Shown: positions 13,885 to 37,954 of the stretch, in pieces | Position numbering within the stretch: the stretch's first letter is position 1 | Layout: every line of letters starts with the position of its first letter | Source: Paenisporosarcina sp. HGH0030 | Lineage (GTDB): Bacteria; Bacillota; Bacilli; Bacillales_A; Planococcaceae | Direction: 5' to 3' | DNA: 64,000 nt | Assembly (NCBI RefSeq): GCF_000411295.1 | Contig: NZ_KE150421.1 | Span: 621,324 to 685,323, forward strand | Program-made: the position numbers and the translations under genes | The notes under the pieces: model-generated | The model's database searches: none | Seen by the model: only the letters and a program-made list of their open reading frames with translations | What the model was told of the DNA's origin: nothing

Positions 13885-14289
13885 CGTTGCCATGAAGAAA
13901 AAAGACATCAACTGGTCCGAATGGTCGATTCATATCCCGAAAGGAAAACGGCCAGTATCGTCCTCTTCACGAAGGAATGTGAGGAACACTTGAAAGTCTA
14001 TCTTGAACCTCAGTGGGACGACTTGCCATATCTGTTTCTGAATACATCCAATAGCGAGCAGATTTGCAGGCGGACCATTCAAAAGCGGTTTACGCGTTAA
14101 ACCAATAAGCTTGGCATTAAGCTGACCCCACATACGCTCAGACATACGTTCGCAGCACACCTCGCCATCAAAGGGATGCCGCTCGTGTGTATCCAGACCC
14201 TGTTGGGCCATCACGATTTGAAACAGAAGCAATACTACGTAAGGCTCTACGACCATGCCCGGAAAGCCATCTATGACGAATGGATGTAA
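13885..14289 (+). pseudogene. tyrosine recombinase/integrase, C-terminal remnant
   Basis: Only the catalytic half survives, in two frames. The first part reads KKKDINWSEWSIHIPKGK and shifts frame near 13950 into VLFTKECEEHLKVYLEPQW. A TAA at 14098-14100 replaces what should be an aromatic residue (R-stop-TNKLGIKLTPHTLRHTFA). The remaining motifs are intact: HTLRHTF, LLGHHD and the catalytic Tyr in QYYVRLYDHARK. The N-terminal domain and the first catalytic arginine are missing. It lies between housekeeping genes and the first repeat-flanked small gene, so it marks an old integration. Confidence 0.88.
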
Positions 14290-14701: not shown

Positions 14702-14756
14702 TCTTAAACTAACGGATGCTTTAGTCAAGTAGAGCAACGTCTTTTAAGACGTTGCT
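14702..14756 (+). repeat. cassette-type repeat A plus hairpin (junction 1)
   Basis: The A core AAACTAACGGATGCTTTAGT is followed by an 11-bp hairpin AGCAACGTCTT / AAGACGTTGCT in the terminator position. No B element follows; instead a fragment of a subtilase gene begins. Confidence 0.7.
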
Positions 14757-14762
14757 ACATTT

Positions 14763-14957
14763 ACATATAAAAGTACTTCTGATAAACAACCGGTTATAGC
14801 AGGTTCAAACAGTGCAGTGGTTACAGGATTGTTCAAAAATACTTCCTACTATTTAAGAGTAAAAGTAGTAGGCGGCTTGAACGATGGTATATCTAACGTT
14901 GTTACGGTAATAACAGCAGATGATCCATTACTACCTGCTAAAAAGAACAACAATTAA
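14763..14957 (+). pseudogene. remnant of a subtilase C-terminal fibronectin-III domain
   Basis: This open stretch without a start encodes SNSAVVTGLFKNTSYYLRVK and VVGGLNDGISNVVTV, ending in a stop. It matches the fibronectin-III module of the large protease downstream (SNTAVVTGLNENTTYKFRVT, TGGLNAGFSNVATA). It is therefore the tail of a lost paralogous surface protein, cut off at its left by the repeat element. Confidence 0.8.
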
Positions 14958-15187: not shown

Positions 15188-15488
15188 TAATTGGTTTATA
15201 TTTCTGAATATTTAATGAATAAATGTTGAAAACTCCCAGTTGATACTAGATTAGTTGAAAAATTTTAATAACCTGATGTTGAAAGACAGATCAGTGTATT
15301 AAATGTGAAGTTAAGTCATTGGCACGAAACCTTTACATTTTTACAAATATATTAATTTACTTTTAGTTAGATAGGGGAGAGGAATGAGGAAAAGGAGAAA
15401 CAAAAAAATTATTATTAAAATCATTGTTTCGTTCGTAATTCATTGCACTAAATGTGTAATAAAGAGACAGGGACTTGGAGGAAAGAAA

Positions 15489-21132: not shown

Positions 21133-21195
21133 CGAGCAGGATTAACGCTTTTTTGTTGAACTTATTGAACTAACGGAGCAGGTTAGTAAAACAAT
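21124..21195 (+). repeat. terminator plus cassette-type repeat B (junction 2)
   Basis: The GCGTTGATCC / GGATTAACGC hairpin with six T is followed by CTTATTGAACTAACGGAG and CAGGTTAGT. The inverted arms are ACTAAC and GTTAGT. It precedes the first small gene of the 21-kb array. Confidence 0.82.
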
Positions 21196-21244
21196 ATAAA
21201 AGTTAATTCGTAAATGTATTAATAATTTTAAGGAGGTAATAAAT

Positions 21245-21496
21245 ATGAAAATAGAAATTGAAGTTAAAGCATTTGGAGAAGTTGAAGTTCAAGGTATAGA
21301 AGACTCTTTTAAAGATGTTGAACTAATGGGTGTACATAAACTTTCTAAAGATACAACACTAGGTGAAGTAGAAGCTCTATTATCTAGGTTATTTGGAGAA
21401 GATGAAAATGGTTATAAAAATCCAGAACAATGTGTCGGTAATAAAATCACGATTCGTGCAAAAAAGGAAAATGGTGAAATTGTATATTTAGGTTAG
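21245..21496 (+). CDS. small hypothetical protein, cassette gene 1 of the 21-kb array
   Basis: The 83-residue acidic protein starts MKIEIEVKAFGEVEVQG behind AAGGAGGTAATAA. It contains no cysteine cluster, membrane helix or known motif, apart from a C-terminal beta-strand pair (NKITIRAKKENGEIVYLG). It lies between a B repeat (50 bp upstream) and an A repeat (7 bp downstream) and shares no operon partner. Confidence 0.7.
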   Translation: MKIEIEVKAFGEVEVQGIEDSFKDVELMGVHKLSKDTTLGEVEALLSRLFGEDENGYKNPEQCVGNKITIRAKKENGEIVYLG

Positions 21497-21502
21497 AAGT
21501 TT

Positions 21503-21575
21503 TGTTGATATAACGGGTACTTTACTTCAAGAAGCCTTTTCTTATTGAACTAACAAGGCAGGTTAGTTCAATAAA
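21503..21575 (+). repeat. composite cassette repeat A-B (junction 3)
   Basis: A diverged A core (GTTGATATAACGGGTACTTT) is followed by GAAGCCTTTT and then a B element (TTGAACTAACAAGGCAGG, TTAGTTCAATAA). The B arms pair as TTATTGAACTAAC / GTTAGTTCAATAA. Confidence 0.8.
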
Positions 21576-21602
21576 ATCATCAAATTCTAGGAGGGGATAA
21601 AG

Positions 21603-21792
21603 TTGAATAGGGATGTAACATTAGCAGCTTATTTAAGCTGGTTATTAATTGATTGAAATTGGTTGGTTATACGGAAAAGTTAATAGCCCATATACAACAG
21701 GTGAAATTGTTTACGTTGTGGTAGTAATTGCAGTAACAGTGTCAGTGGGTGCAGTTGGGATAAAGTCATTCGGCAATTTGAAAGGTAATTAA
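21603..21792 (+). pseudogene. frameshifted small membrane protein, cassette gene 2
   Basis: A TTG start behind AGGAGGGG opens MNRDVTLAAYLSWLLID, which stops at TGA near 21652. One base out of frame, it continues EIGWLYGKVNSPYTTGE followed by a membrane helix VVVVIAVTVSVGAVG. A single-base indel in the run before GAAATTGG has broken a protein of about 62 residues. I do not recognise the family. Confidence 0.7.
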
Positions 21793-21807
21793 AATTTATT
21801 TGTTGAA

Positions 21808-21842
21808 CTTATTGAACTAACGGGGCAGGTTAGTTGAACAAG
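21808..21842 (+). repeat. cassette-type repeat B (junction 4)
   Basis: The sequence has the consensus B core AACTAACGGGGCAGGTTAGTT, with outer arms CTTATTG and GAACAAG. No A element precedes it. Confidence 0.85.
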
Positions 21843-21893
21843 GGAAATGATAAAATGAATACTTAAGTGTGCAAAGGAAGAGAGGATGATGAT

Positions 21894-22346
21894 ATGAATT
21901 ACAAAGATTTAATGAAATCAAAAGGTTATATTTATCTGAACAATTTGTCAGAACCTGAAGAAAATGCCCTATGTATATTAATCGATAGATGTAAAATCAG
22001 TAACAAAAGTGAGGATATAGATTTAGGTGAACGATTAACAGAAGCTTATTATCCTTTTGAAGTGGATGATGGATTGCCAGCAATTCAACTTGAATTTAAG
22101 TCCTATGTATCTTATTCGGTAATAGATGAGTCATTTACAGTGGTGGATGAATATGAAGTTTTTCAAGGTGAAATATTTAAGGTTTACACCAAATCAAGAT
22201 ACTTAGATTTCATTAAAGCTGGAACCATAGCAGAAGATATATTTCCCGAAGACAACTTTGTACATTATCAGGTTCCTTGCTTGAATCATATAATCGATAT
22301 TATTTCGTATGAAGAACCTAAAATAACTGAAAAAAAGAGAGGGTAA
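21894..22346 (+). CDS. hypothetical protein, cassette gene 3
   Basis: The start is set at ATG 21894 behind AGAGAGG; an upstream GTG at 21867 has no ribosome site. The 150-residue protein is acidic and soluble, with a two-layer look (helical first 45 residues, then strands such as AIQLEFKSYVSYSVIDE). No family was recognised. It is flanked by B upstream and A-B downstream, like the other lone genes here. Confidence 0.7.
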   Translation: MNYKDLMKSKGYIYLNNLSEPEENALCILIDRCKISNKSEDIDLGERLTEAYYPFEVDDGLPAIQLEFKSYVSYSVIDESFTVVDEYEVFQGEIFKVYTKSRYLDFIKAGTIAEDIFPEDNFVHYQVPCLNHIIDIISYEEPKITEKKRG

Positions 22347-22347
22347 T

Positions 22348-22436
22348 CTTCAACTAACGGGTGCTTTAGTTGAAGAACATCGGGCGCTTATTCAGCTCTT
22401 TCTTATTCAACTAACGTAGCAAGTTAGTTGAATAAG
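22348..22436 (+). repeat. composite cassette repeat A-B (junction 5)
   Basis: A is CTTCAACTAACGGGTG plus CTTTAGTTGAAG, then AACATCGGG, a weak hairpin and TTTCTTATT, then B with 14-bp perfect arms CTTATTCAACTAAC / GTTAGTTGAATAAG around GTAGCAA. It closes the array; the next gene is on the other strand. Confidence 0.9.
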
Positions 22437-25596: not shown

Positions 25597-28500
25597 ATGA
25601 AAAAAAGTAAATTGAAAGCATTTAAAGTCATGTCTACTGCAGCTGTCACATCTTTACTTCTAACATCTTTAACAGCTTTTGCAGAAACGAATGAAACTTC
25701 AACCAAGTTTCAACCATTGGAAGATATAGTGGAGCAAGAAAGTAAGGATCTTTATAGTGAAGCTGTTACTAAAGAAGGTTTAATTAAAGCGTATAGCCCG
25801 AATGAAATGGTCCGCCTAATCGTTGAAGTTGAACAGCTAACTGATGTGGAGCAATCATCAAAAAATAAAAAGTCAATGATGAAGCAAAAGCAAGACAAAG
25901 TGATTGATGCAATCACTAAAACGAAAAATTCAAAAGTAAATTCCGCTACTAAAGTGAAACATCGTTATTTTGAAGGTTTTAACGGATTCAGTTTAGAAAC
26001 TGAGTTTCAGAATTTGAAAGAAATCGAGTCTATTCAAGGAGTTACGAATGTACATATTGCTAAAACATTCCATGAAACGATGGCAGCTAGTAAAGAATTG
26101 GTACAAGCTCAGAAAGTTTGGGAACAATATGGCTATAAAGGTGAAGGATTAGTTGTCGCGGTCGTAGATTCTGGGATTGATCATACACACAAAGATATGA
26201 AACTTTCTGATGATGCAAAAGCGAAAGAAAAATGGACTCAAGATAAAATGGATCAAAAAATGGCAGATACAGATGTAAACGAAATTTGGTACTCAGATAA
26301 AGTCCCGACAGGTTATGATTGGGCAGACAATGATACAAATGTCATCCCTGGGTTAAATGGTAGTTCGCATGGAACACACGTTGCTGGAACAGTTGGAGCT
26401 AATGGGGACGAAGCAACTGGTGGGGTCGCTGGAATTGCTCCAGGTGTTCAACTATTAGCTGAGAAGGTATTTTCTGATAATGGCGGCGGAGCCTATGAGG
26501 ATGATATTATCGCAGGAATCGAGCATGCCGTTACAATGGGTGCAGATGTTATCAATATGAGCTTAGGTGTTGATGCAGGCTATGTTAGTGAAGAAGATGA
26601 TCCGACTCAAAAAGCCATTCGAGTTGCGACAGAGCGTGGAACACTAGTTGTAGTGGCAGCTGGTAATTCCGCTCATAGTACGAAAAATAATTTATTTCTT
26701 GACTCTGCTTCAAAGCCATATGCAGAAAATCCTGATATTGGTACAGTTGGTGCACCGGGTGTAGGTCCATATGCTTTATCGGTAGCATCCTATGAAAATA
26801 CAAAATTGCATTTAAATACTTTAGCAGATACAGATGGTTTTCAGCTTCCTTTCCAAGATCAAACGATGTTTCCTGCAAAATATAATTTTAAACTTTCAAG
26901 ATTTTTAAATCCGAATCAAGAGTATGAAATGGTGTATGCAAACGAAGGACGAAGCAAAGCTGATTTTCCCGCCAATAAAACTGGCTACATTGCAGTAATA
27001 AAATTATTAAATCAATATACTTCTTATTCTAGTATTCAATTTAACGCAGAAAGGTATGGAGCAAAAGCGGTTATCATAATACCAGCTGATAATATGGCGA
27101 TTGATTATCCTTATCTAAGATTAACTGAAAATTCAATTCCAACTGCTACAACAGGTAAGGCTCCAGGCCAAGAACTATTAAATAAACTAAAAAGTGGTCA
27201 AACCGTCAAGATGAAATTAGACGGGGAAACTTGGATAGATAATGCAAAAAAAGACAACATGTCCAGTTTTTCATCCTATGGTTCTCCAAGTACATTAGAT
27301 TTTAAACCAGAGATTTCGGCTCCTGGTGGAAATATTTATTCAACTGTTCCAGGAAATGATTATGAAAACATGAGCGGTACATCAATGGCAGCACCTCATG
27401 TCGCAGGCGGTTCAGCATTGTTATTGCAGGCACTTTATCAAAAAGGATTAACCCATTCAGAAGATACGGTGTTAAAAGCAAAGCTTGCTTTAATGAATAC
27501 AGCTAATGTTCTCATGGATCCAAAAACAAACGGTGAAGTACCATATTCACCTCGCTTACAAGGATCTGGTTTAATGAAAATTCAAAATGCCATTAACACA
27601 CCTGTCATTGTGACAAGTCGAAACACGCCTTTAGAGCAAGCTGGAGCAGTTGCTTTAAAGGAAATAGGCCAAACTACAAGCTTTAAATTAAACGTGGAAG
27701 CATTCGAAAATCCTAAGGAAAAAAATAATAGTGAGGATATCGAATACCAAGTTTTTGTAGATGTTTTAAAGGATCAGAAGGAAGTGAAAGAATATGATTT
27801 AGACACTGATGGTGACTTGGATTCCAAGGAGTATCTAACTTTAAAAAGTGAACGAATCAATGGAGCAACAGTCACTGTCAATGATAATAAAGTTACTGAA
27901 ACAGAGGGAGCTCTTCTTAAAATTAAACCTGGTCAAACAAAACAGCTGACAATTAATGTTAATTTACCAGATTCCTTAAAGAAAAATAGTTTTGTAGAAG
28001 GATTTGTTCGTCTAGTTCCGGTTACCAAGGATCAAGATAAAGCCGTGCCTTTATCCGTTCCCTATATGGGCTTCTATGGAAATTGGGATGAACCACTAAA
28101 TATCGATCCTCCTGCATGGGAAAAAGATGCATTTTTAGGTTATACTGCACTTTGGGATGGAACATCAGAACGTTATCCAAAGGGATATGATCCAAGTACT
28201 GGAACGTTTGATCTTAACAAAATTGCCATCTCTCCAAACTACCATCTAAATGGTATCTATTCTTCATTTACGGCTTTACGTAATCTACAAAAAACAGAAA
28301 TGTTTGTTGAAGATCAATCAGGTAATATCGTTAAATATTTAGGTGACTTCAGTGAATATACAGGGACACCATGGAAATTCAGAAAGAATATCATGTCATT
28401 TGGGGACACTTATTACAATGAACTCTATTATTGGGATATGACAGATGAATCTGGACAATTTGTACAAGATGGAAATTATCAATATGTGATTAACACGACA

Positions 28501-29109
28501 TTAGACTTTCCAGGTGCAAAACCACAGGAAGTTAAAATGCCTGTGAAAGTAGATTCGACACTACCTAAAGTTACAGACATTAATGTAACTCCAGAGGATG
28601 GAAAATACGAAATTTCCTGGAAAGGCACAGATAATGAAAACGGAAGTGGATATGTTGCTGCAATGGTTTGGGTGAACGGAAATTATTATCTACCAGGAAA
28701 AGAGTCAACATTACTATTAAACTACGAACCGAAAAATATTGTAGTAATTGGAGCAGACAACGCGTTTAACCACTCTTACACCGTTTGGGGAGATCAAAGT
28801 CCACAATATATGAGTGAATGGATGGTCCTTTCCAATTCTAGTGTATGGCCGACTAAAAATTTAAACAATAACACTCCAACTGAGCTAGATTACTTTGCCC
28901 AAAACAGATCGGACTGGACGTTTTATGTTAAAGATACAAATGGTAATATAGTCGATACGTTTGAAGTTAAAAATGAAAAAGAAGTTCATAGAAAATGGGT
29001 ACCTAAACCGGATCTTCCAAATGGTAACTACTTTATTTCAGCTGATCTAGTAACAAAAGATGGTTTTAAAGTAACAACAACGTCAGTAAAAGTTACAGTT
29101 CTTCAATAA
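25597..29109 (+). CDS. secreted subtilisin-like serine protease with PA domain
   Basis: The 1170-residue protein has a signal peptide (AVTSLLLTSLTAFAE), a propeptide to about residue 155, and an S8 domain with Asp in VVDSGIDHTH (near 189), His in SSHGTHVAG (near 257) and Ser in MSGTSMAAPHVAG (near 593). A PA domain is inserted at about 444-545. The C-terminal 550 residues are beta-sandwich modules resembling C5a-peptidase/Fn3-type segments; a DLDTDGDLDSKEY loop may bind calcium. There is no SLH domain or LPXTG motif, so release from the cell is likely. AAAGGAGAG precedes ATG 25597. Confidence 0.92.
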   Translation: MKKSKLKAFKVMSTAAVTSLLLTSLTAFAETNETSTKFQPLEDIVEQESKDLYSEAVTKEGLIKAYSPNEMVRLIVEVEQLTDVEQSSKNKKSMMKQKQDKVIDAITKTKNSKVNSATKVKHRYFEGFNGFSLETEFQNLKEIESIQGVTNVHIAKTFHETMAASKELVQAQKVWEQYGYKGEGLVVAVVDSGIDHTHKDMKLSDDAKAKEKWTQDKMDQKMADTDVNEIWYSDKVPTGYDWADNDTNVIPGLNGSSHGTHVAGTVGANGDEATGGVAGIAPGVQLLAEKVFSDNGGGAYEDDIIAGIEHAVTMGADVINMSLGVDAGYVSEEDDPTQKAIRVATERGTLVVVAAGNSAHSTKNNLFLDSASKPYAENPDIGTVGAPGVGPYALSVASYENTKLHLNTLADTDGFQLPFQDQTMFPAKYNFKLSRFLNPNQEYEMVYANEGRSKADFPANKTGYIAVIKLLNQYTSYSSIQFNAERYGAKAVIIIPADNMAIDYPYLRLTENSIPTATTGKAPGQELLNKLKSGQTVKMKLDGETWIDNAKKDNMSSFSSYGSPSTLDFKPEISAPGGNIYSTVPGNDYENMSGTSMAAPHVAGGSALLLQALYQKGLTHSEDTVLKAKLALMNTANVLMDPKTNGEVPYSPRLQGSGLMKIQNAINTPVIVTSRNTPLEQAGAVALKEIGQTTSFKLNVEAFENPKEKNNSEDIEYQVFVDVLKDQKEVKEYDLDTDGDLDSKEYLTLKSERINGATVTVNDNKVTETEGALLKIKPGQTKQLTINVNLPDSLKKNSFVEGFVRLVPVTKDQDKAVPLSVPYMGFYGNWDEPLNIDPPAWEKDAFLGYTALWDGTSERYPKGYDPSTGTFDLNKIAISPNYHLNGIYSSFTALRNLQKTEMFVEDQSGNIVKYLGDFSEYTGTPWKFRKNIMSFGDTYYNELYYWDMTDESGQFVQDGNYQYVINTTLDFPGAKPQEVKMPVKVDSTLPKVTDINVTPEDGKYEISWKGTDNENGSGYVAAMVWVNGNYYLPGKESTLLLNYEPKNIVVIGADNAFNHSYTVWGDQSPQYMSEWMVLSNSSVWPTKNLNNNTPTELDYFAQNRSDWTFYVKDTNGNIVDTFEVKNEKEVHRKWVPKPDLPNGNYFISADLVTKDGFKVTTTSVKVTVLQ

Positions 29110-29121
29110 CTAATAAAAAAT

Positions 29122-29160
29122 AAAGAAAGCTAACCATAATAAAGGGTTAGCTTTCTTTGT
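29122..29160 (+). terminator. terminator after the second subtilase gene
   Basis: A perfect 14-bp stem AAAGAAAGCTAACC / GGTTAGCTTTCTTT with a 9-nt loop. Confidence 0.85.
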
Positions 29161-29356
29161 ATGTTTTCGGAATTAGGATCTAACAAAAGAATAGGTCATA
29201 TATACATTCGGTAATTCATTATAGATTTCTACATAATGAAATCATGTCCGAATAACTTGAAATTCTATTATATTATTGTAATACTGATAATATTTTCAAT
29301 AAATTTTTATACATATAAGTCTATGGAACTATGCATTAATTAAATAGGTTGTTTTT

Positions 29357-29410
29357 CTAAGTAGCGCGATAACCATCATTATTGCTATCTAGATCCGATG
29401 AATCCCCACC
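29357..29410 (-). pseudogene. possible remnant of an excalibur-type C-terminus
   Basis: Read on the minus strand, GGDSSDLDSNNDGYRAT ends in a stop. The DLDSNNDG part matches the calcium-binding excalibur motif (DxDxDGxxCE) but the closing CE is lost. A run of nine T lies directly upstream. There is no start. Confidence 0.4.
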
Positions 29411-29445
29411 AAAAAAAAACACACGTAACATTATATTTAAGAGTG

Positions 29446-29475
29446 AAGAGCGAAGTGACTAGTCACTTCGCTTTT
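29446..29475. terminator. palindromic bidirectional terminator
   Basis: AGCGAAGTGACT / AGTCACTTCGCT is a perfect 24-bp palindrome with T-rich sequence on the right and A/G-rich sequence on the left. Confidence 0.65.
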
Positions 29476-29479
29476 CTTA

Positions 29480-29700
29480 TGTAAATATGTATGGTTGTGG
29501 ATTACCGATAATAGTGAGCAGGGATGGACTCGTAACTGTTTCTAAAGCGAAACGCTGAATCCCAATCTCCACATTGTGGGGGCTGGACGCCTAAGTTCTT
29601 GATGGCTACCGGATATGAAAAGGTAATATCACCGTTGCCTATTTTAGAGGAGATGCTGTTCCTCATCCCAATCGGGGTGTTATGTCAACCTACTGTGAAT
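29480..29700. other. unexplained structured stretch in a 900-bp gene-free interval
   Basis: Two readings compete. On the plus strand GGGAT...ATCCC encloses GTTTC-TAAAGC-GAAAC, followed by further short hairpins, which suggests a structured RNA. On the minus strand 29684-29502 is open for 60 codons and ends in a stop (GNGDITFSYPVAIKNLGV, QPPQCGDWDSAFRFRNSY), which looks like a protein tail. No family was recognised for either. The flanks (29161-29356 and 29701-30013) hold nothing I can name. Confidence 0.4.
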
Positions 29701-30013
29701 GCTAGATTTAAAGTCCTTAATGTTTATTTAATAGATCATTTACAAATCTATAATATCTAAGACGTATTTTATTAACAATGCAGCTTTAATATATATATTA
29801 GTGGGGATAGCTTGAGTGGCTATCATGGTATTTGGCGAAGGAGGAGCCATTTTTCAGTATACATATTTACGCTTAAACAAGAAGGTACATTCTATGAACT
29901 CCTATTAATTAAAGATTTCAATTCAGAAGGACCAGCAGCACATAAGTGGTAGAAAGTACTGTATCAAGGGATCTATAGCAAATTTAATTAACCATTAATT
30001 TTGGAGGTTCTAT

Positions 30014-33000
30014 ATGAGGAAAAATTGGAATAAAAGGATCTTACCGATTACCATGTCCTTTGCATTGGCAAGCAGTATTATTTCGCCAAGTCTTATATCA
30101 GCTTTAGGCAGTTTCGATTTAAACTCACCCGTCATTCAAACACCCATCAATGAATATCAAGCTAGTCTTGCTCCGGGTGTAACGGAAAAACACTACAGCT
30201 TTGAAGGAAAAGATGGAAAAAAGATTGAGAGTTTCGTAGTGGATGTTGATGTACAAAATTCGAGCGTATCCATTGAAGCAGGTACACCGAATGACGGAGC
30301 AGCATTTGGCCTGCAGCCCGTTAGACAGCAAGCCAATGCAGCAAATGGCGACAACCGTAAAGTAGTGGCAGCTGTGAATGCTGATTTTTATAATATGGCT
30401 ACTGGTGAACCAATAGGCGTTGTTTACAAAGATGGACAAGCATTAAAGGCTCAGTATTCAGCATCACAAAAATTCTTCGGAATCAAAAAATCTGGTGAAG
30501 CCGTCATTGGGGACTCAACTCTATATGATGGAATGAAAGATCAATTACAAGAAGCGCTGGGTGGGAATGCCATTCTCGTGAAAAATGGTCAAGTCTATCA
30601 AACTCCACAAACGGGAGCAGATAGAGAGCCTCGAACAGCGGTAGGGATTAAAGCAGACGGCGATGTATTTTTTGTCGTGGTCGACGGAAGACAAGAGGTA
30701 TATTCAGCTGGAATCTCCATGCCTGAATTAGCACAATTAATGATCGATTTAGGGGCAGTAAATGCGTTAAACCTTGATGGAGGTGGGTCTTCTACCTTCA
30801 CAACTCGCGAACTGGGCGGCGATAATCTTGAGGTAGACAATCAACCTTCTGACCGTTCAGAAAGAAGCGTAGCAAACTCTTGGCTGATTGTCTCGAAAGA
30901 GCCATCCGACCACCTTTTTGATTCGGCTCATATTGAACCATATGACCAATCCTTTACCCCAAGTGCCACGATTCCATTCACGGCCAAGGGAAGAGACAAA
31001 TCCATGGCTTCAGCATCTCTGCCAGCCTCCGGTTTAACATGGGAATTGTCTGATTCAACCTTTGGTACGATCGATGAGAATGGAAAGTTTTTATCAAATG
31101 GAAAAACAGGACAGTTGGAAATCATCCTGAAATATCAGGGCAATCTGGTTGGAAAAAATATCGTTGAAATTGCTAAGCCTGATGAGATGTCCTTTACTTC
31201 AACAGAGCTAACAGCAGCTAAAAATAGTCAAACCAATTTAAATTTAATGACAAAATTCCAAAAGAGAAATGTACACTGGAACTCTCAAGATATGGAGTTT
31301 GACATCCCTGAAGGAATGGGAACCATTGATGAATCTGGTGTCCTCCGTACTGGAGACAAAACGGTTTCAGGGACGATTACGGCCCGCTTGAAGGGGACAA
31401 ACCTTTCAGCACAAATCAATGTTTCGGTTGGAAAGCTTCCTGAAGTCTTATTTGATTTTGAAGGTGGGCTTGAGGGCTGGAAACCATCTGTTGTGGGGCG
31501 CGGTGAAAAAGCGACACTAGGTTTGGCTGCCTATCCAGCACCAGTAAGATTCGGCAATCAGTCATTGAAATTGGATTTTGATCTAACAAGTGCACAAACT
31601 GGAACCACCCTTGGAGCCTATGCAGGACCTGGCTCAAATATCGCAATTCCAGATAATCCCTCCAGCATTGGAATGTGGATTTACGCAACTCCGGATGCAC
31701 AAGGTTATTGGCTGAGAATGAACATTGTGGACGGAAACGGCAAAACGCAAACCATTAATCTTAATCAAGAAAAACCAGGGATCAATTGGACAGGCTGGAA
31801 ATACATCGAGGCCGACATACCAGCCTCCTTTACAGGTCCGTTCAAAATATCAGGAACACAAGCGGTAAGATTAATGGTTACGAAATCAGGAATCACCGTA
31901 CCCCTGAGAAAAGGCACCATCTATATTGATAATATTAGAGCCGTATATGGAGATAAAGTGGATGACTTAAATCCTCCAGTTATCCAATCAATTAACGTAG
32001 AAGGGAAAGAATTCACGAAAAATGCGGTCAATTTGAAAGCAAATGTGAATGAATATGAAGATGATTCTTTTAAAACGGGAATTGACTGGGAAAAAATCAG
32101 ATTTTTAGTAGATGGTAAAGACTACTCCAAATTAGAAGGTCATTTTTCATTTGATATGGATGGATCGGTCTCATTAAGTGGATTACAATGGGCGGATGGA
32201 ACCCATCAAATAACCCTTATGGTCCCTGATAAATTCGGAAACCAAGCCGTTAAAACGGTCTATTTTACCGTGAACACTGGCGCGGCAAAGATGGAACTGG
32301 TCAAAAAACAAGATCAAGCCTTGTTAGGTGATGTGTTTGACCTAGTAGTGAAGGCTGACAATCCATCTGAAATCTCTGGCTCCACCATTAAAATGCAATT
32401 AGATAAGAACTTCCCAGTGGAAAATGTTACTTTTTCTAATGGGTTCAACACAAGTACCTCAAGCTATGATACTGAAACTGGAATACTTACATTGAATCTA
32501 ATGAATAGCGGCGAAACAGCGGCAACCGCAGAAGCTGCAACGATTCAGATTCGCATTCCTGCATCGACAAAAGAAGGCAGCAAATTAACCTATGAAATGA
32601 TAGAAGCTAGCTTAAGCTACACGGAGCCAAAAGAAGAAAACTTCGTTTCGACATATTCAATGGCACCAGCCAGCTTCGAAGTGAAAGGTGCCTTCGATAT
32701 TATCGCAGAGCCTATATTAATCGGGAAGCCTGTTGTTATGACAGTGAAAGATATGAACAACGAGTTAATCGCTGACGCAGAAATTTTCGCCATCATCAAT
32801 GGGAACACGGAGCCTGTTCTAGTAGGAAAAACAGATGAAAAAGGTGTTCTCCGTGTGGATACTATCACAAATGAAGTGAAGAACATCTCTTTATATGCTG
32901 TAAAGGATGGAAAGTATTCGTTTAAAGTAAACACGCAGACCTATCCGCCTCTTGCGGCAGTGACAGAAATAAAAAATATCCTTTCCACTCCAACAAGTGA

Positions 33001-34120
33001 TCCTCATAAAGGAAAAGGTTTCACATGGATGTCGAGTCCGTTAGCGAAAGAAAAACCTGTTATTCAATTTGCACGAAAAAAGGATTTTGACAAGAAAGGT
33101 GAACGGTCGCTAGAAACCATCGACGGATCATCCACTAACCAGGTATTCTCTGGGGAGCAAGATCCTACGAAAAATGGAATCGTCCGAGTAAATGAAGTCA
33201 CATTAAAGAAATTACAACAAGGGACAACATACGTTTATCGAGTGGGAGATGGAGAGAACTGGTCAGAGCTGCAAGAATTCACCACTTTAATGAGGAAGCA
33301 AAGCTTTGAATTTGCCGTTTTAGGTGACACGCAATCGCCAGCAGATTTAAGTGACTTTTCGAAAATTCTTGGGGATCTTGATAAAAAAGACTTATCGTTC
33401 ATGATCCATGTAGGCGATCTGATTGACGAATCCTCCAAATTTAAACAATGGGATGATACATTAAATGTCTTAAGCCAATACAGCAACATTCGTTCCACCG
33501 ATCTTGTTGCGGCGCTAGGAAATCATGAATACATGGGAGATGCGAATGGTCAGCTAGCAAAAGCCATCTTAAATTCCCCTGAAAATGGACCTGAGGCAGA
33601 CAAAGGCGGGACATATTCGGTTGATTACAATAACATGCACATTAGCGTACTAGGATACACCGATGATACCGAGATTCTGAACAAGCAGTTAGAGTGGCTG
33701 AAACAGGATGTTACGAATTCCGATAAACCTTGGAAAATCCTTGTGACACACAAACCTCCTTATTACACAAATCCGTTTGGCGGGAATGAACTCATGAAAC
33801 AAAAACTGCCACCGGTCGTCGATGAATTAGGGATTGACATCGTGTTCTCTGGCCATGATCATTCCTATGGCAGAACGAAAAAGCTGAAAGACGGAAAAGA
33901 AGATCCGAACGGAACGGTTTATGTGGTCGCCGGTACAACCGGTAAAAAGCACTATGATGCCGTGGCAGATGAGAAATTTGACTTCGTCAACATGGAAAAT
34001 ATCGCAATTTCATTACAAGCCAAAGTGAACAAAGATCAAATCAGCTTCACCACTGTTTCATCTGACGGTGAAACCATTGATCAATTTACAGTTGTAAATA
34101 AAGATTATCATGAAGAGTAA
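30014..34120 (+). CDS. secreted phosphodiester glycosidase / metallophosphoesterase fusion
   Basis: The 1368-residue protein starts with a signal peptide (ILPITMSFALASSIISPSLI). An NAGPA-type phosphodiester glycosidase domain follows (about 60-290) with the family signature NLDGGGSSTF near 252. Then come Ig-like linkers, a carbohydrate-binding-like beta sandwich (about 475-650), a cohesin-like module (about 755-880), and a purple-acid-phosphatase-type Fn3 plus metallophosphoesterase domain with GDTQ (near 1104), GDLID, GNHEY, VTHKPPYY and GHDHSYG (near 1280). It probably uncaps and then dephosphorylates phosphorylated glycans or teichoic acids outside the cell. GGAGG lies before the ATG. Confidence 0.88.
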   Translation: MRKNWNKRILPITMSFALASSIISPSLISALGSFDLNSPVIQTPINEYQASLAPGVTEKHYSFEGKDGKKIESFVVDVDVQNSSVSIEAGTPNDGAAFGLQPVRQQANAANGDNRKVVAAVNADFYNMATGEPIGVVYKDGQALKAQYSASQKFFGIKKSGEAVIGDSTLYDGMKDQLQEALGGNAILVKNGQVYQTPQTGADREPRTAVGIKADGDVFFVVVDGRQEVYSAGISMPELAQLMIDLGAVNALNLDGGGSSTFTTRELGGDNLEVDNQPSDRSERSVANSWLIVSKEPSDHLFDSAHIEPYDQSFTPSATIPFTAKGRDKSMASASLPASGLTWELSDSTFGTIDENGKFLSNGKTGQLEIILKYQGNLVGKNIVEIAKPDEMSFTSTELTAAKNSQTNLNLMTKFQKRNVHWNSQDMEFDIPEGMGTIDESGVLRTGDKTVSGTITARLKGTNLSAQINVSVGKLPEVLFDFEGGLEGWKPSVVGRGEKATLGLAAYPAPVRFGNQSLKLDFDLTSAQTGTTLGAYAGPGSNIAIPDNPSSIGMWIYATPDAQGYWLRMNIVDGNGKTQTINLNQEKPGINWTGWKYIEADIPASFTGPFKISGTQAVRLMVTKSGITVPLRKGTIYIDNIRAVYGDKVDDLNPPVIQSINVEGKEFTKNAVNLKANVNEYEDDSFKTGIDWEKIRFLVDGKDYSKLEGHFSFDMDGSVSLSGLQWADGTHQITLMVPDKFGNQAVKTVYFTVNTGAAKMELVKKQDQALLGDVFDLVVKADNPSEISGSTIKMQLDKNFPVENVTFSNGFNTSTSSYDTETGILTLNLMNSGETAATAEAATIQIRIPASTKEGSKLTYEMIEASLSYTEPKEENFVSTYSMAPASFEVKGAFDIIAEPILIGKPVVMTVKDMNNELIADAEIFAIINGNTEPVLVGKTDEKGVLRVDTITNEVKNISLYAVKDGKYSFKVNTQTYPPLAAVTEIKNILSTPTSDPHKGKGFTWMSSPLAKEKPVIQFARKKDFDKKGERSLETIDGSSTNQVFSGEQDPTKNGIVRVNEVTLKKLQQGTTYVYRVGDGENWSELQEFTTLMRKQSFEFAVLGDTQSPADLSDFSKILGDLDKKDLSFMIHVGDLIDESSKFKQWDDTLNVLSQYSNIRSTDLVAALGNHEYMGDANGQLAKAILNSPENGPEADKGGTYSVDYNNMHISVLGYTDDTEILNKQLEWLKQDVTNSDKPWKILVTHKPPYYTNPFGGNELMKQKLPPVVDELGIDIVFSGHDHSYGRTKKLKDGKEDPNGTVYVVAGTTGKKHYDAVADEKFDFVNMENIAISLQAKVNKDQISFTTVSSDGETIDQFTVVNKDYHEE

Positions 34121-34265: not shown

Positions 34266-34611
34266 TTGCCCTCCTCATGGCAGAAGTGGCTCAAAATTGG
34301 GGTATTATATTCATTTGTTTTTTTAGGATATTCTATTTACCTTTGGAGAAAAAGAAAAGAGGGTAAGGGATATTATTGGGATGATGAAGGGGTTGTATTT
34401 GACCTGCAAGGGAATAAAGTTTTTTGGGATGAGATTGAAAGTATTAAATTCTCCAATGTAAAAGGTATGAAGTCTACTGCGATTTATCCTCACTATACAA
34501 ATCAAAAAAAAGATTAGAATCCGTCGTAAGAAATCGATGACAACAACTGCACACTCAATTGATTGGTTTTTGATTGAAAAGCCAAGGGAATTTCACAAGA
34601 AATGGTTTTAA
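34266..34611 (+). pseudogene. small membrane protein with PH-like tail, frameshifted
   Basis: There is no good start; the frame opens at TTG 34266 just after a stop. It encodes one membrane helix (IGVLYSFVFLGYSIYLW) and then a strand-rich region (GYYWDDEGVVFDLQGNKVFW, DEIESIKFSNVKGMKSTAIY) like bacterial PH domains. The frame breaks in a run of eight A (34504-34511). With one A fewer it continues KKIRIRRKKSMTTTAHSIDW and FLIEKPREFHKKW. The end abuts an antisense integrase fragment. Truncated at the 5' end and frameshifted, it is probably dead. Confidence 0.65.
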
Positions 34612-34794
34612 ATGCTTCCCTGAAATCGCTAGGTATTCTTTCAATTGAATTGTGTCCAGAGTTGTTATTTCAATATCCTTAAAATATTCAATAAGTAATG
34701 ACAATTGGAGCCGATAAGCCTTTAATGTCTGTGGAGAAAAGCCTTCAATCCTTTTATCAGATTCAAATGCTTCCCATGCTTTTGACAGTAGCAA
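34603..34794 (-). pseudogene. tyrosine recombinase N-terminal (core-binding) fragment
   Basis: On the minus strand, LSKAWEAFESDKRIEGFSPQ followed by TLKAYRLQLSLLIEYFKDIE and LDTIQLKEYLAISGKHLKP is the SAM-like N-terminal domain of a phage/XerD-type integrase. The reading stops matching just after HLKP, where it runs into the antisense of the preceding gene. The catalytic domain is absent. It belongs to a different subfamily from the remnant at 13.9 kb. Confidence 0.75.
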
Positions 34795-34867: not shown

Positions 34868-34892
34868 TTTACTAACGGACAGGTTAGTTGAA
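34868..34892 (+). repeat. cassette-type repeat B (junction 6)
   Basis: TTTACTAACGGACAGGTTAG plus TTGAAG carries the B core with arms ACTAAC / GTTAGT. It lies between the integrase fragment and the first small gene of the 35-kb array. Confidence 0.8.
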
Positions 34893-34947
34893 GAGTTCGG
34901 TGCAAAGCGTTAGGCTTTCAAAAGATGAATGGGAATGGAGGGTTAAT

Positions 34948-35181
34948 GTGTATTTGCTTCTTTCAATAGTTTTGAGTACGATTTTAGGATTTGCTTTACT
35001 TACTATGGGACCACTTATAGGCGGGGTCATTGCTTTTGGAATAGTTGTTGGTTGTATTTTTAGAGGATTGTATTTACTAAATGACCTACATAAAAGTATT
35101 TTATCTATATCTCCCAAAAAAGATAAAGTCCAACAGGCATATGAAAATTATTTAAAGGAACGAGATAAAGATTCTAATTAA
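34948..35181 (+). CDS. small two-helix membrane protein, cassette gene 4
   Basis: GTG 34948 is behind GGAGGG with a 5-bp gap. A TTG at 34888 inside the B repeat would add 20 residues and is less likely, although the residues it adds (LSKDEWEWRVN) are helical and could be genuine. The 77-residue form has two membrane helices (LLLSIVLSTILGFALLTM and GGVIAFGIVVGCIFRGLYLL) and a charged tail with coiled-coil character (KVQQAYENYLKERDKDS). Family unknown. Confidence 0.65.
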   Translation: MYLLLSIVLSTILGFALLTMGPLIGGVIAFGIVVGCIFRGLYLLNDLHKSILSISPKKDKVQQAYENYLKERDKDSN

Positions 35182-35262
35182 ACTGATGCGTTAGTTAGAG
35201 ATCATCGGGTGATTAAGAAGCCTTTTTTTATTGAACAAACGGGGCAGTTTAGTTAAAAAAGG
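35177..35262 (+). repeat. composite cassette repeat A-B (junction 7)
   Basis: A diverged A (AACTGATGCGTTAGTT), then GATCATCGGGTGATTAAG, AAGCCTTTTTTTATT and a B element TTGAACAAACGGGGCAG, TTTAGTTAAAAAA. Confidence 0.85.
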
Positions 35263-35328
35263 TTAACTTGCAGATTGTGGAGAATATGTAAATAGAGGAA
35301 AGAAGATGGGAGAGGAAGGGTAAGTAAC

Positions 35329-35679
35329 TTGAAGAAAACAATTGGTTGGACACTTGCTTTAACTACACTTTTAATCGGAGGAGCAATCTATTATTTCATA
35401 ACAGTTTCTCTCTACGAACCATCGGAAGATTTATTTGACTTCCCTATTCCTAAAAAGGCTGAACTAGTTAAAGAAAATGAACACGCGGTAATTTATGATT
35501 GGTCCAGCGCATCCGAAGAAAATGGGATACCATTTGGGTATAAATTAGTTATCAAAGCGAATGGATGGGAAAGAGTTGAGAGTTCGGATATAGATGCTTC
35601 TCCCCATTACTCAAAAGGGAATCATCAAATAAATGTGCTTTCTCTAAGAAAGCAATTGACCCTCATCATAGAGAAATAA
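35329..35679 (+). CDS. small anchored hypothetical protein, cassette gene 5
   Basis: The 116-residue protein has an N-terminal helix (TIGWTLALTTLLIGGAIYYF) that anchors or exports it, then a soluble domain (FPIPKKAELVKENEHAVIYD, then GIPFGYKLVIKANGWERVES). This shape recurs in small Bacillus cassette-like genes, but I cannot name the family. The start is TTG behind GGAAGGGTAAG. Confidence 0.65.
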   Translation: MKKTIGWTLALTTLLIGGAIYYFITVSLYEPSEDLFDFPIPKKAELVKENEHAVIYDWSSASEENGIPFGYKLVIKANGWERVESSDIDASPHYSKGNHQINVLSLRKQLTLIIEK

Positions 35680-35702
35680 CTGACATTGAAATATTTAGAA
35701 CC

Positions 35703-35755
35703 TTATTCAATTAACGGGTGCTTTACTTCGAGTAGGAGTGAAGCTTTTTTCTTAT
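35703..35755 (+). repeat. cassette repeat A plus terminator (junction 8)
   Basis: TTATTCAATTAACGGGTGC, TTTACTTCGAGTAGG and GAGTGAAGC with six T. The A element and terminator overlap here. The partner B is displaced about 130 bp to the right. Confidence 0.75.
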
Positions 35756-35885
35756 TTATGAAAAGATGGATACATAGATTTCAAGGCAACTTGGTTGCCT
35801 TTCAGTTAAATGAAAGCGGACCAGATAATCAACAGTAGGATAATTATATTTATGTTAATGTAAATGTTAAGTTTGTGAAGAAATT

Positions 35886-35911
35886 TACTTAAAGTAACGG
35901 GCAGTTAAATA
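35886..35911 (+). repeat. degenerate cassette repeat B (junction 9)
   Basis: TTAAAGTAACGGGCAGTTAA keeps the centre and shortened arms of the B element immediately upstream of the ribosome site of the next gene. Confidence 0.55.
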
Positions 35912-35926
35912 ATAAAGGAGTTAGTA

Positions 35927-36673
35927 ATGAAAAATAATTTATACGAATATGTTCAACAACAATTTGTTTCTATTCCTAGCGGTACAGAATTAATACGTGA
36001 TTACCGAGTTACCAACAAATGGTTAAGTGCTAATCATCAGTTAGCAATGCCTGGCTCAAGAAAAGGGCATACTGAAAAAATAATGGTTGTAGAAGTGCAT
36101 GGATTTTATTTGGATAAACTACCTGTAACTGAATCGTTATATAATACCATCTTAAATAATGAGTTTGAAATTACTTTAAACGATCGTAAACCAGTGACTA
36201 ATGTTTCTTGGCTAGATGCCATAAAATTTTGTAATTCTTTTTCGATACAATTAGGCTTAAAACCTGCTTATGAAATTTTAGATGATACAACGAATATTTC
36301 ATGTGATTGGTCAGCAAATGGATTTCGGTTACCTACTGATGCGGAATGGCAATATGCATGTAAAGCTAATATAAATAAATATTCATATGGTAGGCTTGAA
36401 GATATAGCTTGGTATAAAGGAAACTCGGATAACAAAATTCACCCAGTAGGTTTAAAACAACCTAATTTATTTGGGTTATACGATATGATAGGGAATGTTT
36501 GGGAATGGTGTTGGGATTTATATGATATCGAGACTTATGGAGAATATCGAATTTTTAGAGGAGGTAGTTGGGCAGAGGAGGAAAGAGGGTGCGGTAGTAC
36601 GTCTAGAAGACGAGGACATCCAACATTCACTATTGATGATTTAGGTTTTCGATTAGCAAGGTCTATTCTATAA
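35927..36673 (+). CDS. formylglycine-generating-enzyme-like (SUMF1/FGE-sulfatase) protein, cassette gene 6
   Basis: The 248-residue soluble protein has the complete FGE fold markers: FVSIPSGTE, GFYLDKLPVTESLYN, PVTNVSWLDAIKFCN, FRLPTDAEWQYACK, NLFGLYDMIGNVWEWCWD and FRGGSWAEEE ending DLGFRLARS. True FGEs convert a sulfatase Cys to formylglycine, but many bacterial members modify other targets or only bind, and no sulfatase gene is present in this window. AAAGGAG precedes the ATG. It is the largest member of the repeat-flanked genes. Confidence 0.88.
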   Translation: MKNNLYEYVQQQFVSIPSGTELIRDYRVTNKWLSANHQLAMPGSRKGHTEKIMVVEVHGFYLDKLPVTESLYNTILNNEFEITLNDRKPVTNVSWLDAIKFCNSFSIQLGLKPAYEILDDTTNISCDWSANGFRLPTDAEWQYACKANINKYSYGRLEDIAWYKGNSDNKIHPVGLKQPNLFGLYDMIGNVWEWCWDLYDIETYGEYRIFRGGSWAEEERGCGSTSRRRGHPTFTIDDLGFRLARSIL

Positions 36674-36820
36674 TTAATACCTAAACACGATACAGTTTGT
36701 TTGTATCTTCAGGACTTAAATACAATGCTCTTTGGGGTCATGCGTCTATTTATAGACATTACTCCAAAAAGCTTTTTTTATTTTGAAGGGAGTGAGATGA
36801 AGGAAGACTTCTAGTTTGAT

Positions 36821-36882
36821 CATCAGGCTGATGAAACAGCCCTTTTTTCTTATTGAACTAACGGGGGAGGTTAGTTGAATAA
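36821..36882 (+). repeat. composite cassette repeat: GATCATC motif, terminator, B (junction 10)
   Basis: GATCATCAGGCTGATGAA, ACAGCC and TTTTTTCTTATT, then B with GAACTAACGGGGGAGGTTAG. The A core is missing. Between the FGE gene and this point (36674-36820) is only a 5-codon frame with a good ribosome site (ATG near 36797), perhaps the stub of a deleted gene. Confidence 0.8.
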
Positions 36883-36986
36883 AAAGGGATTTTTGGAATG
36901 GTGTTGAATAAGTTAATATATGTAAATTATTGAGACTTTTAAGCACTTTCCATTGGACAGGGGTATAAATTTAAAGGGGATGTATT

Positions 36987-37376
36987 ATGCGTCGAAGTAT
37001 TTCAGTATTATTGTTGCTGGTATTGGTATCATTTTTGCTTTCAGCTTGTGGCTATAAAACATTCGCTTTTTCTGGAGAGTCGGATAATTGGATGGCAGAA
37101 TTAAAGGTTACTCAAACCGAAGACGAATATGAAGAACAGGAATTAAAAATTCAATATAAAGGCAATGACGTAGACTCTGTTGGAGAAATTAAATATATCG
37201 TAGAGACTAATGCAGGAGGTTTTAGCGGTAGCGGTTTATCATTGGAGAAAAATGGAACTCTAAAAGCTAGTGCTGAAGGTAATCCAACCAATGCCAAAAT
37301 CGTTGAAGAATCTGAGGTTATAGTAACAATAGAATGGAATAGCCATACTGAAACAATCATATTAACAATCAATTAA
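36987..37376 (+). CDS. small lipoprotein, cassette gene 7
   Basis: The 129-residue protein has a lipoprotein signal peptide with lipobox LLSAC (Cys21) and an all-beta soluble domain (WMAELKVTQTEDEYEEQELK...VIVTIEWNSHTETIILTIN). It should sit on the outer face of the membrane. AAAGGGGATG precedes the ATG. No family was recognised beyond a general Ig-like look. An A repeat follows the stop within 10 bp. Confidence 0.72.
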   Translation: MRRSISVLLLLVLVSFLLSACGYKTFAFSGESDNWMAELKVTQTEDEYEEQELKIQYKGNDVDSVGEIKYIVETNAGGFSGSGLSLEKNGTLKASAEGNPTNAKIVEESEVIVTIEWNSHTETIILTIN

Positions 37377-37379
37377 ATA

Positions 37380-37463
37380 ATGAACTAACGTTGCTTAGTT
37401 GGTGACATAGGAGCTGCTAGTCAGCTCTTTTTCTTATTGAACTAATGGGCAGTTTAGTTAAGG
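37380..37463 (+). repeat. composite cassette repeat A-B (junction 11)
   Basis: A is shortened (TGAACTAACGTTGCTTAGTT), the terminator is GAGCTG-CTAGT-CAGCTC with five T, and B is TTGAACTAATGGGCAG, TTTAGTTAAG. Confidence 0.85.
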
Positions 37464-37521
37464 GTGACCTTGCCAGTAATAAAGTAATACTTGCTGTAAA
37501 ACAATTGATGATTAATATTCC
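37464..37521 (+). other. empty cassette between two complete repeats
   Basis: About 58 bp lie between B of one junction and A of the next, with no start, ribosome site or frame. Its size and position are those of a unit that has lost its gene. Confidence 0.55.
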
Positions 37522-37615
37522 TTCTTCAACTAACGAAGGCTTTAGTTAAAGATCATCGGGTTGTTTAAACAACCCTTTTTCTTATTGAACTAACAGGGCA
37601 GGTTAGTTCGATAAG
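37522..37615 (+). repeat. composite cassette repeat A-B (junction 12), best preserved
   Basis: A is CTTCAACTAACGAAGGC, TTTAGTTAAAG; the motif GATCATCGGG leads into a perfect terminator GGGTTGTTT / AAACAACCC with five T; B is CTTATTGAACTAACAGGG, CAGGTTAGTTCGATAAG. Confidence 0.9.
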
Positions 37616-37674
37616 AAAAGCGATAAAAATAGGTATAAGAGATATTGTTAATTACGTTCCAGAGGGGGTTACTA

Positions 37675-37740
37675 ATGAAGTCGATCAAAGAAAAATTAGA
37701 CCTATTACATAGAAAATACAGTAATCAAAGGGATGTTTAG
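37675..37740 (+). CDS. 21-residue leader-like reading frame
   Basis: ATG 37675 is behind GAGGGGG. The frame MKSIKEKLDLLHRKYSNQRD then Val and stop ends one base before the TTG of the next frame. It may be a short coupled peptide or the residual start of a larger gene. No function is known. Confidence 0.4.
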   Translation: MKSIKEKLDLLHRKYSNQRDV

Positions 37741-37741
37741 T

Positions 37742-37954
37742 TTGAATAATCGACAAGAAACTCCAGAAGAAAAAAGAGAGAGATTAAGACAATAAGAACT
37801 TAAAAAAAATCCGTATGGTGCAATAAGAGATGGATTAAATCGAGGTGAAAATGAAAATATAACAGATTTAGTTGGTGATTTAGGTTGGAAAGGAACAGGA
37901 ATATTAATAATTGTATTAATAGTTGGATATGTACTTTACAAATTATTATATTAA
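37742..37954 (+). pseudogene. DUF6366-like small membrane protein with internal stop
   Basis: The frame reads MNNRQETPEEKRERLRQ, stop (TAA 37793-37795), ELKKNPYGAIRDGLNRGENE, then a membrane helix GILIIVLIVGYVLYKLL. The pattern RERLRQQELKxNPxGxxRDxxNR is typical of DUF6366, where the stop position is usually Gln, so a single CAA-to-TAA change explains it. Without the stop the protein would have 70 residues. Confidence 0.7.

What the first reader, a model, noticed from the sequence alone, without database searches (positions are those of the whole stretch)
34868..37954. Array of repeat-punctuated single-gene cassettes with a composite A-terminator-B element
Five intact or nearly intact genes of unrelated types (two-helix protein, anchored protein, FGE-like protein, lipoprotein, DUF6366-like), all on the plus strand, each with its own ribosome site, are separated by the same composite element: hairpin A with core AACTAACGGGTGCTTTAGTT, a GATCATCGGG motif entering a rho-independent terminator whose sequence varies, then hairpin B with core AACTAACGGGGCAGGTTAGTT and arms extending to CTTATT/AATAAG. 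One junction sits within 10 bp of each stop codon, as in integron cassettes, and the B arms (AACTAAC / GTTAGTT) come within a base or two of the integron R boxes (RYYYAAC / GTTRRRY). But L boxes, the usual attC length and an IntI gene are missing. I infer a cassette-like system of gene exchange in Bacillales, perhaps acting through single-strand folding. To my knowledge this element is not a named family.
Basis: partly seen in the sequence, partly recalled or inferred. Interest (0 to 1): 0.88.

Follow-up and report, generated by a model that had tools for sequence, protein, structure and literature searches.

The report
Integron-like gene cassette system in Bacillales
This stretch is one of many arrays of single-gene cassettes that a dedicated recombinase, encoded inside the arrays, appears to cut out and shuffle at short repeated sites in soil bacteria related to Bacillus, much as integrons do in Gram-negative bacteria but with a different enzyme and different sites.

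Summary
The repeats are real. The genome (Paenisporosarcina-like, inferred) holds 134 copies of the B core and none of the reversed control; about half of its array units were not found in a second genome of the same species. Alignment breakpoints fall on the repeats about nine times more often than expected.

In 79 related loci 348 of 359 sites are on the other strand.

Identical cassettes in different contexts place the exchange inside the 21-bp core: left arms stay with the upstream gene, right arms with the downstream gene. Left and right outer arms assort independently, which argues against one folded hairpin. A and B act as separate sites; the terminator between them can be exchanged too.

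It works like an integron but is not one (IntI score far below cut-off, sites not attC), nor an Acinetobacter dif module. I found no description in the open-access papers held (no preprints). Recombination is inferred, not tested at the bench.

The parts
14703..14785 (+). A site followed by the remnant of the recombinase gene's 3' end and its terminator
   Evidence: 88% identical over 85 bp to the A + 3' end next to the intact gene
21168..22429 (+). First cassette array of the window: sites B 21168, A 21508, B 21548, B 21815, A 22352, B 22409 with single genes between them
   Evidence: site scan, sequence
34603..34794 (-). Truncated tyrosine recombinase gene, residues 1-64 only
   Evidence: tblastn 98% identity over 64 aa
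34795..34889 (+). attI-like leader of the recombinase gene, ending in the first site (34870-34889)
   Evidence: 96% identical to the leader of the intact gene; leader conserved in the other genomes up to GTTAGTT
34948..35181 (+). Cassette gene 1, small membrane protein (GTG start after GGAGGG; longest ORF from 34888)
   Evidence: ORF list and sequence; start codon chosen by eye
35182..35254 (+). Worn A, terminator, B (35234-35254)
   Evidence: sequence and site scan
35329..35679 (+). Cassette gene 2, 116 aa with an N-terminal hydrophobic stretch, no Pfam family
35709..35755 (+). A with terminator; no B follows directly. In the other genome of the species the same left flank is followed by B and another gene
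35892..35911 (+). Worn B site
   Evidence: 5 mismatches
35927..36673 (+). Cassette gene 3, formylglycine-generating-enzyme-like domain
   Evidence: PF03781 1.5e-35
36810..36876 (+). Terminator with worn A, and B (36856-36876)
36987..37376 (+). Cassette gene 4, lipoprotein-like, 129 aa
   Evidence: lipobox seen by eye; no Pfam family
37383..37459 (+). A (37383-37400, 2 nt short), terminator, B (37440-37459, 1 nt short)
37528..37608 (+). A (37528-37547), terminator, B (37588-37608); the segment before it holds no gene
37742..37954 (+). Cassette gene 5, DUF6366, with an in-frame stop; last unit of the array, no site after it
   Evidence: PF19893 5.3e-22 on 37796-37954; stop reported

Best explanation
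A mobile gene-cassette system. A Xer-like tyrosine recombinase, encoded inside the arrays on the opposite strand, exchanges DNA between directly repeated 20-21-bp core sites built as arm-centre-arm. Two site types share their arms but differ in the centre: A (centre GGGTGCT) and B (centre GGGGCAG). Recombination between two like sites in direct orientation should excise the DNA between them as a circle, and the reverse reaction should insert it at another A or B, including the attI-like B beside the recombinase gene. Segments thus alternate: gene (B to A), then terminator (A to B), so that most genes carry their own stop signal and some a promoter-like motif, and gene and terminator can be exchanged separately. 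Shown: recombinase gene, sites, their linkage and orientation, breakpoints inside the core, movement of units between loci and strains. Inferred: that this recombinase is the catalyst, that a circle is the intermediate, and that the sites act as double strands (about 0.65 for that last step).
For: Recombinase in the arrays on the opposite strand; among 62 loci of clade 1 (>=75% identity) a B lies within 130 nt upstream of the start in 49 and an A within 130 nt after the stop in 39, against 0 of 4000 random stretches; 348 of 359 sites on the other strand; leader conserved up to GTTAGTT, then divergence. Genomes with >=5 sites: 26 of 37 have the gene or a fragment of it; with fewer: 16 of 224; p=1e-16. 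Alignment ends within 25 bp of a site: 239 of 883 against 3.1% of the sequence. The same unit in several places, from the first base of A to the last base of B. Position-by-position identity puts the exchange inside the core; left and right outer arms are independent. Array segments shared between the two strains 61/120, control tiles 161/185. One gene per cassette, 80 families among 89 proteins.
Against: No recombination was observed directly. G101 has as many sites and rearrangements but no intact recombinase, so its changes would be older or made by an enzyme since lost. Eleven of 37 site-rich genomes lack the gene at the threshold used. Most rearrangements compared come from one species. 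The strong orientation with replication (88/89) is also what a single-strand mechanism would give.
Confidence: 0.87

Rival explanations
1. A true integron-like reaction on folded single strands: A-terminator-B, or B alone, is recognised as a hairpin on one strand, and only that strand is exchanged.
For: Perfect arms AACTAAC/GTTAGTT, within one base of RYYYAAC/GTTRRRY; 88 of 89 sites oriented with the replication fork in G101 and all 60 consistent in G154, the preference reported for chromosomal integrons (PMC11023631).
Against: Outer arms pair no better than shuffled (B 4.45 vs 4.40, sd 0.05; A 3.61 vs 3.67, sd 0.06), whereas attC sites keep structure rather than sequence; here the sequence is what is kept. 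A and B exchange independently. The recombinase scores 96 against an IntI cut-off of 265.
Confidence: 0.22
2. Homologous recombination between similar repeats (RecA) shuffles the genes; the repeats are terminators or a MITE-like family with no enzyme of their own.
For: A-terminator-B is an ~80-100-bp repeat; some units that differ by loss of A or B look like slippage between the shared AACTAACGGG or TTAGTTCAATAAG.
Against: Units are exchanged where only ~21 bp are shared and the next base outside the core is at background identity; linkage and fixed spacing to a recombinase gene; no other strand-specific reason for a 97% orientation rule.
Confidence: 0.06
3. The recombinase is a passenger; the sites are worked by the host XerC/XerD-type enzymes, as in Acinetobacter dif modules.
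For: The genomes carry further Xer-type recombinases; G101 lacks an intact copy of this gene.
Against: Genomes with those enzymes but without this gene mostly have few or no sites; a conserved attI-like leader sits next to the gene; its relatives 60-69% identical sit in genomes with a different site.
Confidence: 0.08

Closest known systems
Integrons (IntI + attI + attC cassette arrays)
   Same: Arrays of single-gene cassettes in one orientation, gene variety, a tyrosine recombinase on the opposite strand with an insertion-type site next to its start, gain/loss/relocation of units at the sites, co-orientation with replication, an IS that specialises on the sites
   Different: Recombinase is Xer-like without the score of IntI; short sequence-conserved core sites instead of structure-conserved attC; two site types; terminators between genes; many arrays scattered over the chromosome; recombinase unit itself flanked by A and B inside arrays
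dif modules / pdif sites (XerC-XerD, Acinetobacter plasmids; PMC13141974)
   Same: Short arm-spacer-arm sites, alternating site kinds, crossover inside the site, module shuffling, an IS family that targets the sites (IS1202, PMC10132070)
   Different: Different site sequence; pdif sites alternate in inverted orientation and use the host XerC/XerD; here sites are directly repeated and a recombinase gene is part of the system
NCBIfam NF040815 recomb_XerA_Arch (site-specific tyrosine recombinase/integron integrase)
   Same: Best family for the recombinase, just above its cut-off (224 vs 220); closest solved relatives are the XerC-like 4a8e, E. coli XerD 1a0p and XerA 5hxy
   Different: A protein-sequence family; its name does not show a cassette role

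Membership tests
Integron | IntI-type integrase (integron-specific family model) | tested here: not met
   TIGR02249 95.9 bits against a cut-off of 265; PRK15417 67.6 against 435; 279 aa long. The integron-specific insertion (PMC8138268) was not checked on a structure
Integron | attC sites: conserved folded structure with R and L boxes, variable sequence | tested here: not met
   Core sequence conserved; outer arms do not covary; arms differ by one base from the R-box consensus. Folding in vivo was not tested
Integron | Insertion site (attI) next to a divergently placed integrase gene | tested here: met
   B just upstream of the start on the opposite strand in 49 of 62 loci; leader conserved up to GTTAGTT
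Integron | Array of mostly single-ORF cassettes in one orientation | tested here: met
   89 of 101 on the site strand, 82 of 89 single gene, 80 families
Integron | Promoterless cassettes read from one promoter | tested here: inconclusive
   Terminators between genes (93 of 105 spacers with a T-run) and extended -10 motifs 35 vs 12 of 227 suggest insulated units, but no transcript data
Integron | Integrase-catalysed excision and integration | not testable with these tools
   Only genomic traces of movement
dif-module system | 28-bp XerC/XerD sites related to dif | tested here: not met
   Site sequence unrelated to the pdif sites listed in PMC13141974
dif-module system | Sites alternate in inverted orientation | tested here: not met
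   All 14 window sites on +; 348 of 359 on one strand relative to the recombinase
Known RNA element or terminator family (Rfam) | Match at gathering score | tested here: not met
   No match in the window
MITE / bcr-type repeat | The repeat itself is the mobile unit, with terminal inverted repeats and target duplication | tested here: not met
   The sites are the ends of moving units, not the units; the B. cereus bcr elements themselves were not compared
Tyrosine recombinase superfamily | PF00589 catalytic domain with R, HxxR, H and Y | tested here: met
   PF00589 8.2e-40; GCRIGE, HQLRHSYATH, LLGHEK, RIYAQL in the sequence

The most novel reading that the evidence does not exclude
A class of gene-cassette platform that arose apart from IntI/attC integrons and is widespread in Bacillales. 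Two core sites with different centres, worked by one Xer-like recombinase, let genes and terminators be shuffled as separate parts; sister recombinases (60-69% identical) work their own sites (TTCAACAAT-centre-TTGTTGAA) in the same or neighbouring genomes.
Probability: 0.5. Interest if true: 0.95.

Novelty: new variant of a known kind. Interest (0 to 1): 0.88.

Why it matters
Integrons are the standard example of a bacterial gene-shuffling platform and are most common in Gram-negative groups. An analogous system with around 100 sites per genome in soil Bacillales would mean that the cassette strategy evolved more than once, would account for a large store of small genes of unknown function there, and offers short, apparently double-stranded sites that are easy to test. 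A plasmid copy among mercury-resistance genes shows that it can travel on plasmids.

Tried and rejected
Rfam scans of the window and of a region with a 1.75-kb insert in a B site: nothing; the insert is an IS110-type element (DEDD-type transposase seen in its sequence), not a group II intron as first guessed. Reading A-terminator-B as one attC-like hairpin (note): dropped, because A and B exchange independently and the outer arms do not covary. Phages: only distant relatives of the recombinase, <=37% identical. Searches for papers on such a system found none; preprints and most subscription papers are not in the library.
Full report
1. The observation. The window has 14 A/B sites with at most 3 mismatches, all on +, in two arrays (21168-22429 and 34870-37608) plus one A at 14707. 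AACTAACGGG with <=1 mismatch occurs 12 times against 2.3 expected. The window is base 621324-685323 of a 2.5-Mb contig; the 3.5-Mb genome has 134 B cores with <=3 mismatches and none for the reversed pattern, in clusters with one strand each. Several details of the finding needed correction.

2. Distribution. With <=1 mismatch the B core is in 87 of 261 genomes of the family, in 10 of 19 genera, very unevenly: 88 and 89 in the two genomes of this species, 61, 60, 90 and 78 in some others, 0 in close relatives. In a sample of the class it is rare elsewhere, though variant sites (AAGTAAC, AACTATC arms) flank the recombinase in Bacillaceae. One genome of the same genus has the contig length and coordinates of Paenisporosarcina sp. 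OV554, so the window is probably from Paenisporosarcina (inference).

3. The enzyme. PF00589 genes of this genome include one embedded in an array on the opposite strand (C1:499450-500286) and a second copy with the same protein in another array. It is 279 aa with a TTG start and the usual catalytic motifs; NF040815 above its cut-off, XerC, XerD and IntI models below theirs. Of 62 loci with >=75% identity, B lies just upstream of the start in 49 and A just beyond the stop in 39; background 0 of 4000. In 79 loci 348 of 359 sites are on the other strand. The stretch from the start codon to GTTAGTT is conserved; after GTTAGTT the genomes share nothing beyond the right outer arm. This is the arrangement of intI and attI. 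The finding's array has the same leader at its left end, with only residues 1-64 of the gene left.

4. Linkage across genomes. With >=5 sites, 26 of 37 genomes have the recombinase (>=75% identity, fragments included); with fewer, 16 of 224; p=1e-16 (the two lists were combined by hand and related genomes are not independent). Named relatives lie in Psychrobacillus, Viridibacillus, Lysinibacillus, Sporosarcina, Solibacillus, Neobacillus, Peribacillus, Litchfieldia, Metabacillus and others, and on plasmid pSP10-266k of Sporosarcina psychrophila, with nine sites on the strand opposite to it in a region with merA, merR, NUDIX and GNAT genes.

5. Movement. Between the two genomes of the species (mostly 97-99.9% identical in shared DNA) alignment ends fall within 25 bp of a site in 239 of 883 cases, 3.1% expected (ends are not fully independent). 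Examples: a 559-bp unit from the first base of A to the last base of B in three places; the left flank of the A behind window gene 2 followed in the other genome by B and another gene. Of array segments in comparable regions 61 of 120 are found in the other genome, of control tiles 161 of 185. Not all of G101 was fetched, so some absent cassettes may lie elsewhere.

6. Where the exchange happens. For identical cassettes with a different neighbour (pairs, statistics): left outer arm and left core arm stay with the upstream gene, right core arm and right outer arm with the downstream gene. At B (15 pairs with a new upstream, 10 with a new downstream neighbour) identity at position -1 is 0.33 against a background of 0.31 in the first set, and at position 21 it is 0.40 against 0.36 in the second, but 0.93 in the first. 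A rare right arm, GTTAACT, travels with its downstream gene. Centre positions 8-9 agree in both sets, as expected if recombining sites must match in the centre, but the numbers are small. Across 286 distinct B and 237 distinct A contexts the left and right outer arms pair no better than shuffled (4.45 vs 4.40; 3.61 vs 3.67 of 7). Repeated exchange in the core predicts this; a conserved long hairpin does not. A and B both behave as boundaries: the same gene plus A is found with different terminators, B sites and next genes. Sites with only A or only B can be explained by slippage between short shared repeats.

7. Cassettes. In 102 segments starting at B the longest ORF is on the site strand in 89 and opposite in 12; median 120 aa; 82 of the 89 hold no second long ORF; the 89 proteins fall in 80 families; median 34 nt from stop to next site. 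Of 105 distinct A-to-B spacers 93 have a run of four or more T, and about half of the spacers fold clearly better than shuffled. Extended -10 motifs are enriched after B (35 vs 12 of 227).

8. Replication. In G101 (dnaA at base 22, 3.63 Mb) 88 of 89 sites point with the fork, above an assumed 75% of genes on the leading strand (p=2e-10; sites in a cluster are not independent). G154 fits if its terminus lies near 1.2 Mb, which I inferred from its dnaA position. Chromosomal integrons show the same preference, explained there by the folded bottom strand (PMC11023631). Here selection against head-on genes may be enough. It keeps the single-strand rival alive.

9. A sister system. Recombinases 60-69% identical mostly have no AACTAAC site nearby but relatives of TTCAACAAT-centre-TTGTTGAA, again with two kinds of centre. 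Counts are 13-28 in five of the carriers but 1-10 in the others, and 0 in two genomes without such a recombinase; a clade-1 genome (G154) also has 18 and G101 has 12. The pattern is nearly palindromic, so most places are counted on both strands. The pairing is a lead, not a result.

10. Judgement. It works like an integron, fails two defining integron features (IntI, attC) and the dif-module features. I file it as a new variant of the known kind 'gene cassettes moved by a tyrosine recombinase', with a real chance that it deserves a class of its own. The literature check covers open-access papers only.

Noticed in passing
L022, L024, L030, L037, L038, L039, L045 (G101); related ends in L010, L115, L120, L160: An IS110-type element of about 1.75 kb is inserted at the same place and in the same orientation in the centre of B sites (GGGGCAG^CATTCC...GAGGGAG^GTTAGTT) at seven or more sites of one genome: a B-site specialist, parallel to the IS1111 members that target attC (PMC11187229).
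   Followed up: partly
L090-L100, L162-L177: A sister group of recombinases (60-69% identical) seems to go with another two-centre site, TTCAACAAT-(CGGGCGC or ATGGCCC)-nnTTGTTGAA.
   Followed up: partly
G101 and G154 chromosomes: Nearly all sites are oriented with the replication fork (88 of 89 in G101).
   Followed up: partly
upstream of many A sites in L003-L020: A subset of cassettes has a conserved TTGTGAAnnnnTnCACTTA just before AACTAACGGG, itself a small hairpin (seen); it may be a third kind of cassette end or a regulatory motif.
   Followed up: no
L109 (G175:C1:2606934-2611341): Four tyrosine recombinases about 30-33% identical to the cassette recombinase lie side by side on one strand, with A/B sites nearby.
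   Followed up: no
window 13960-14286: Fragment of another tyrosine recombinase (31% identical over 111 aa) with an in-frame stop, upstream of the isolated A site.
   Followed up: no
window 15384-20756 and 25597-34120: Three very large ORFs (1790, 1170 and 1368 aa) flank the two arrays of the window; not identified.
   Followed up: no
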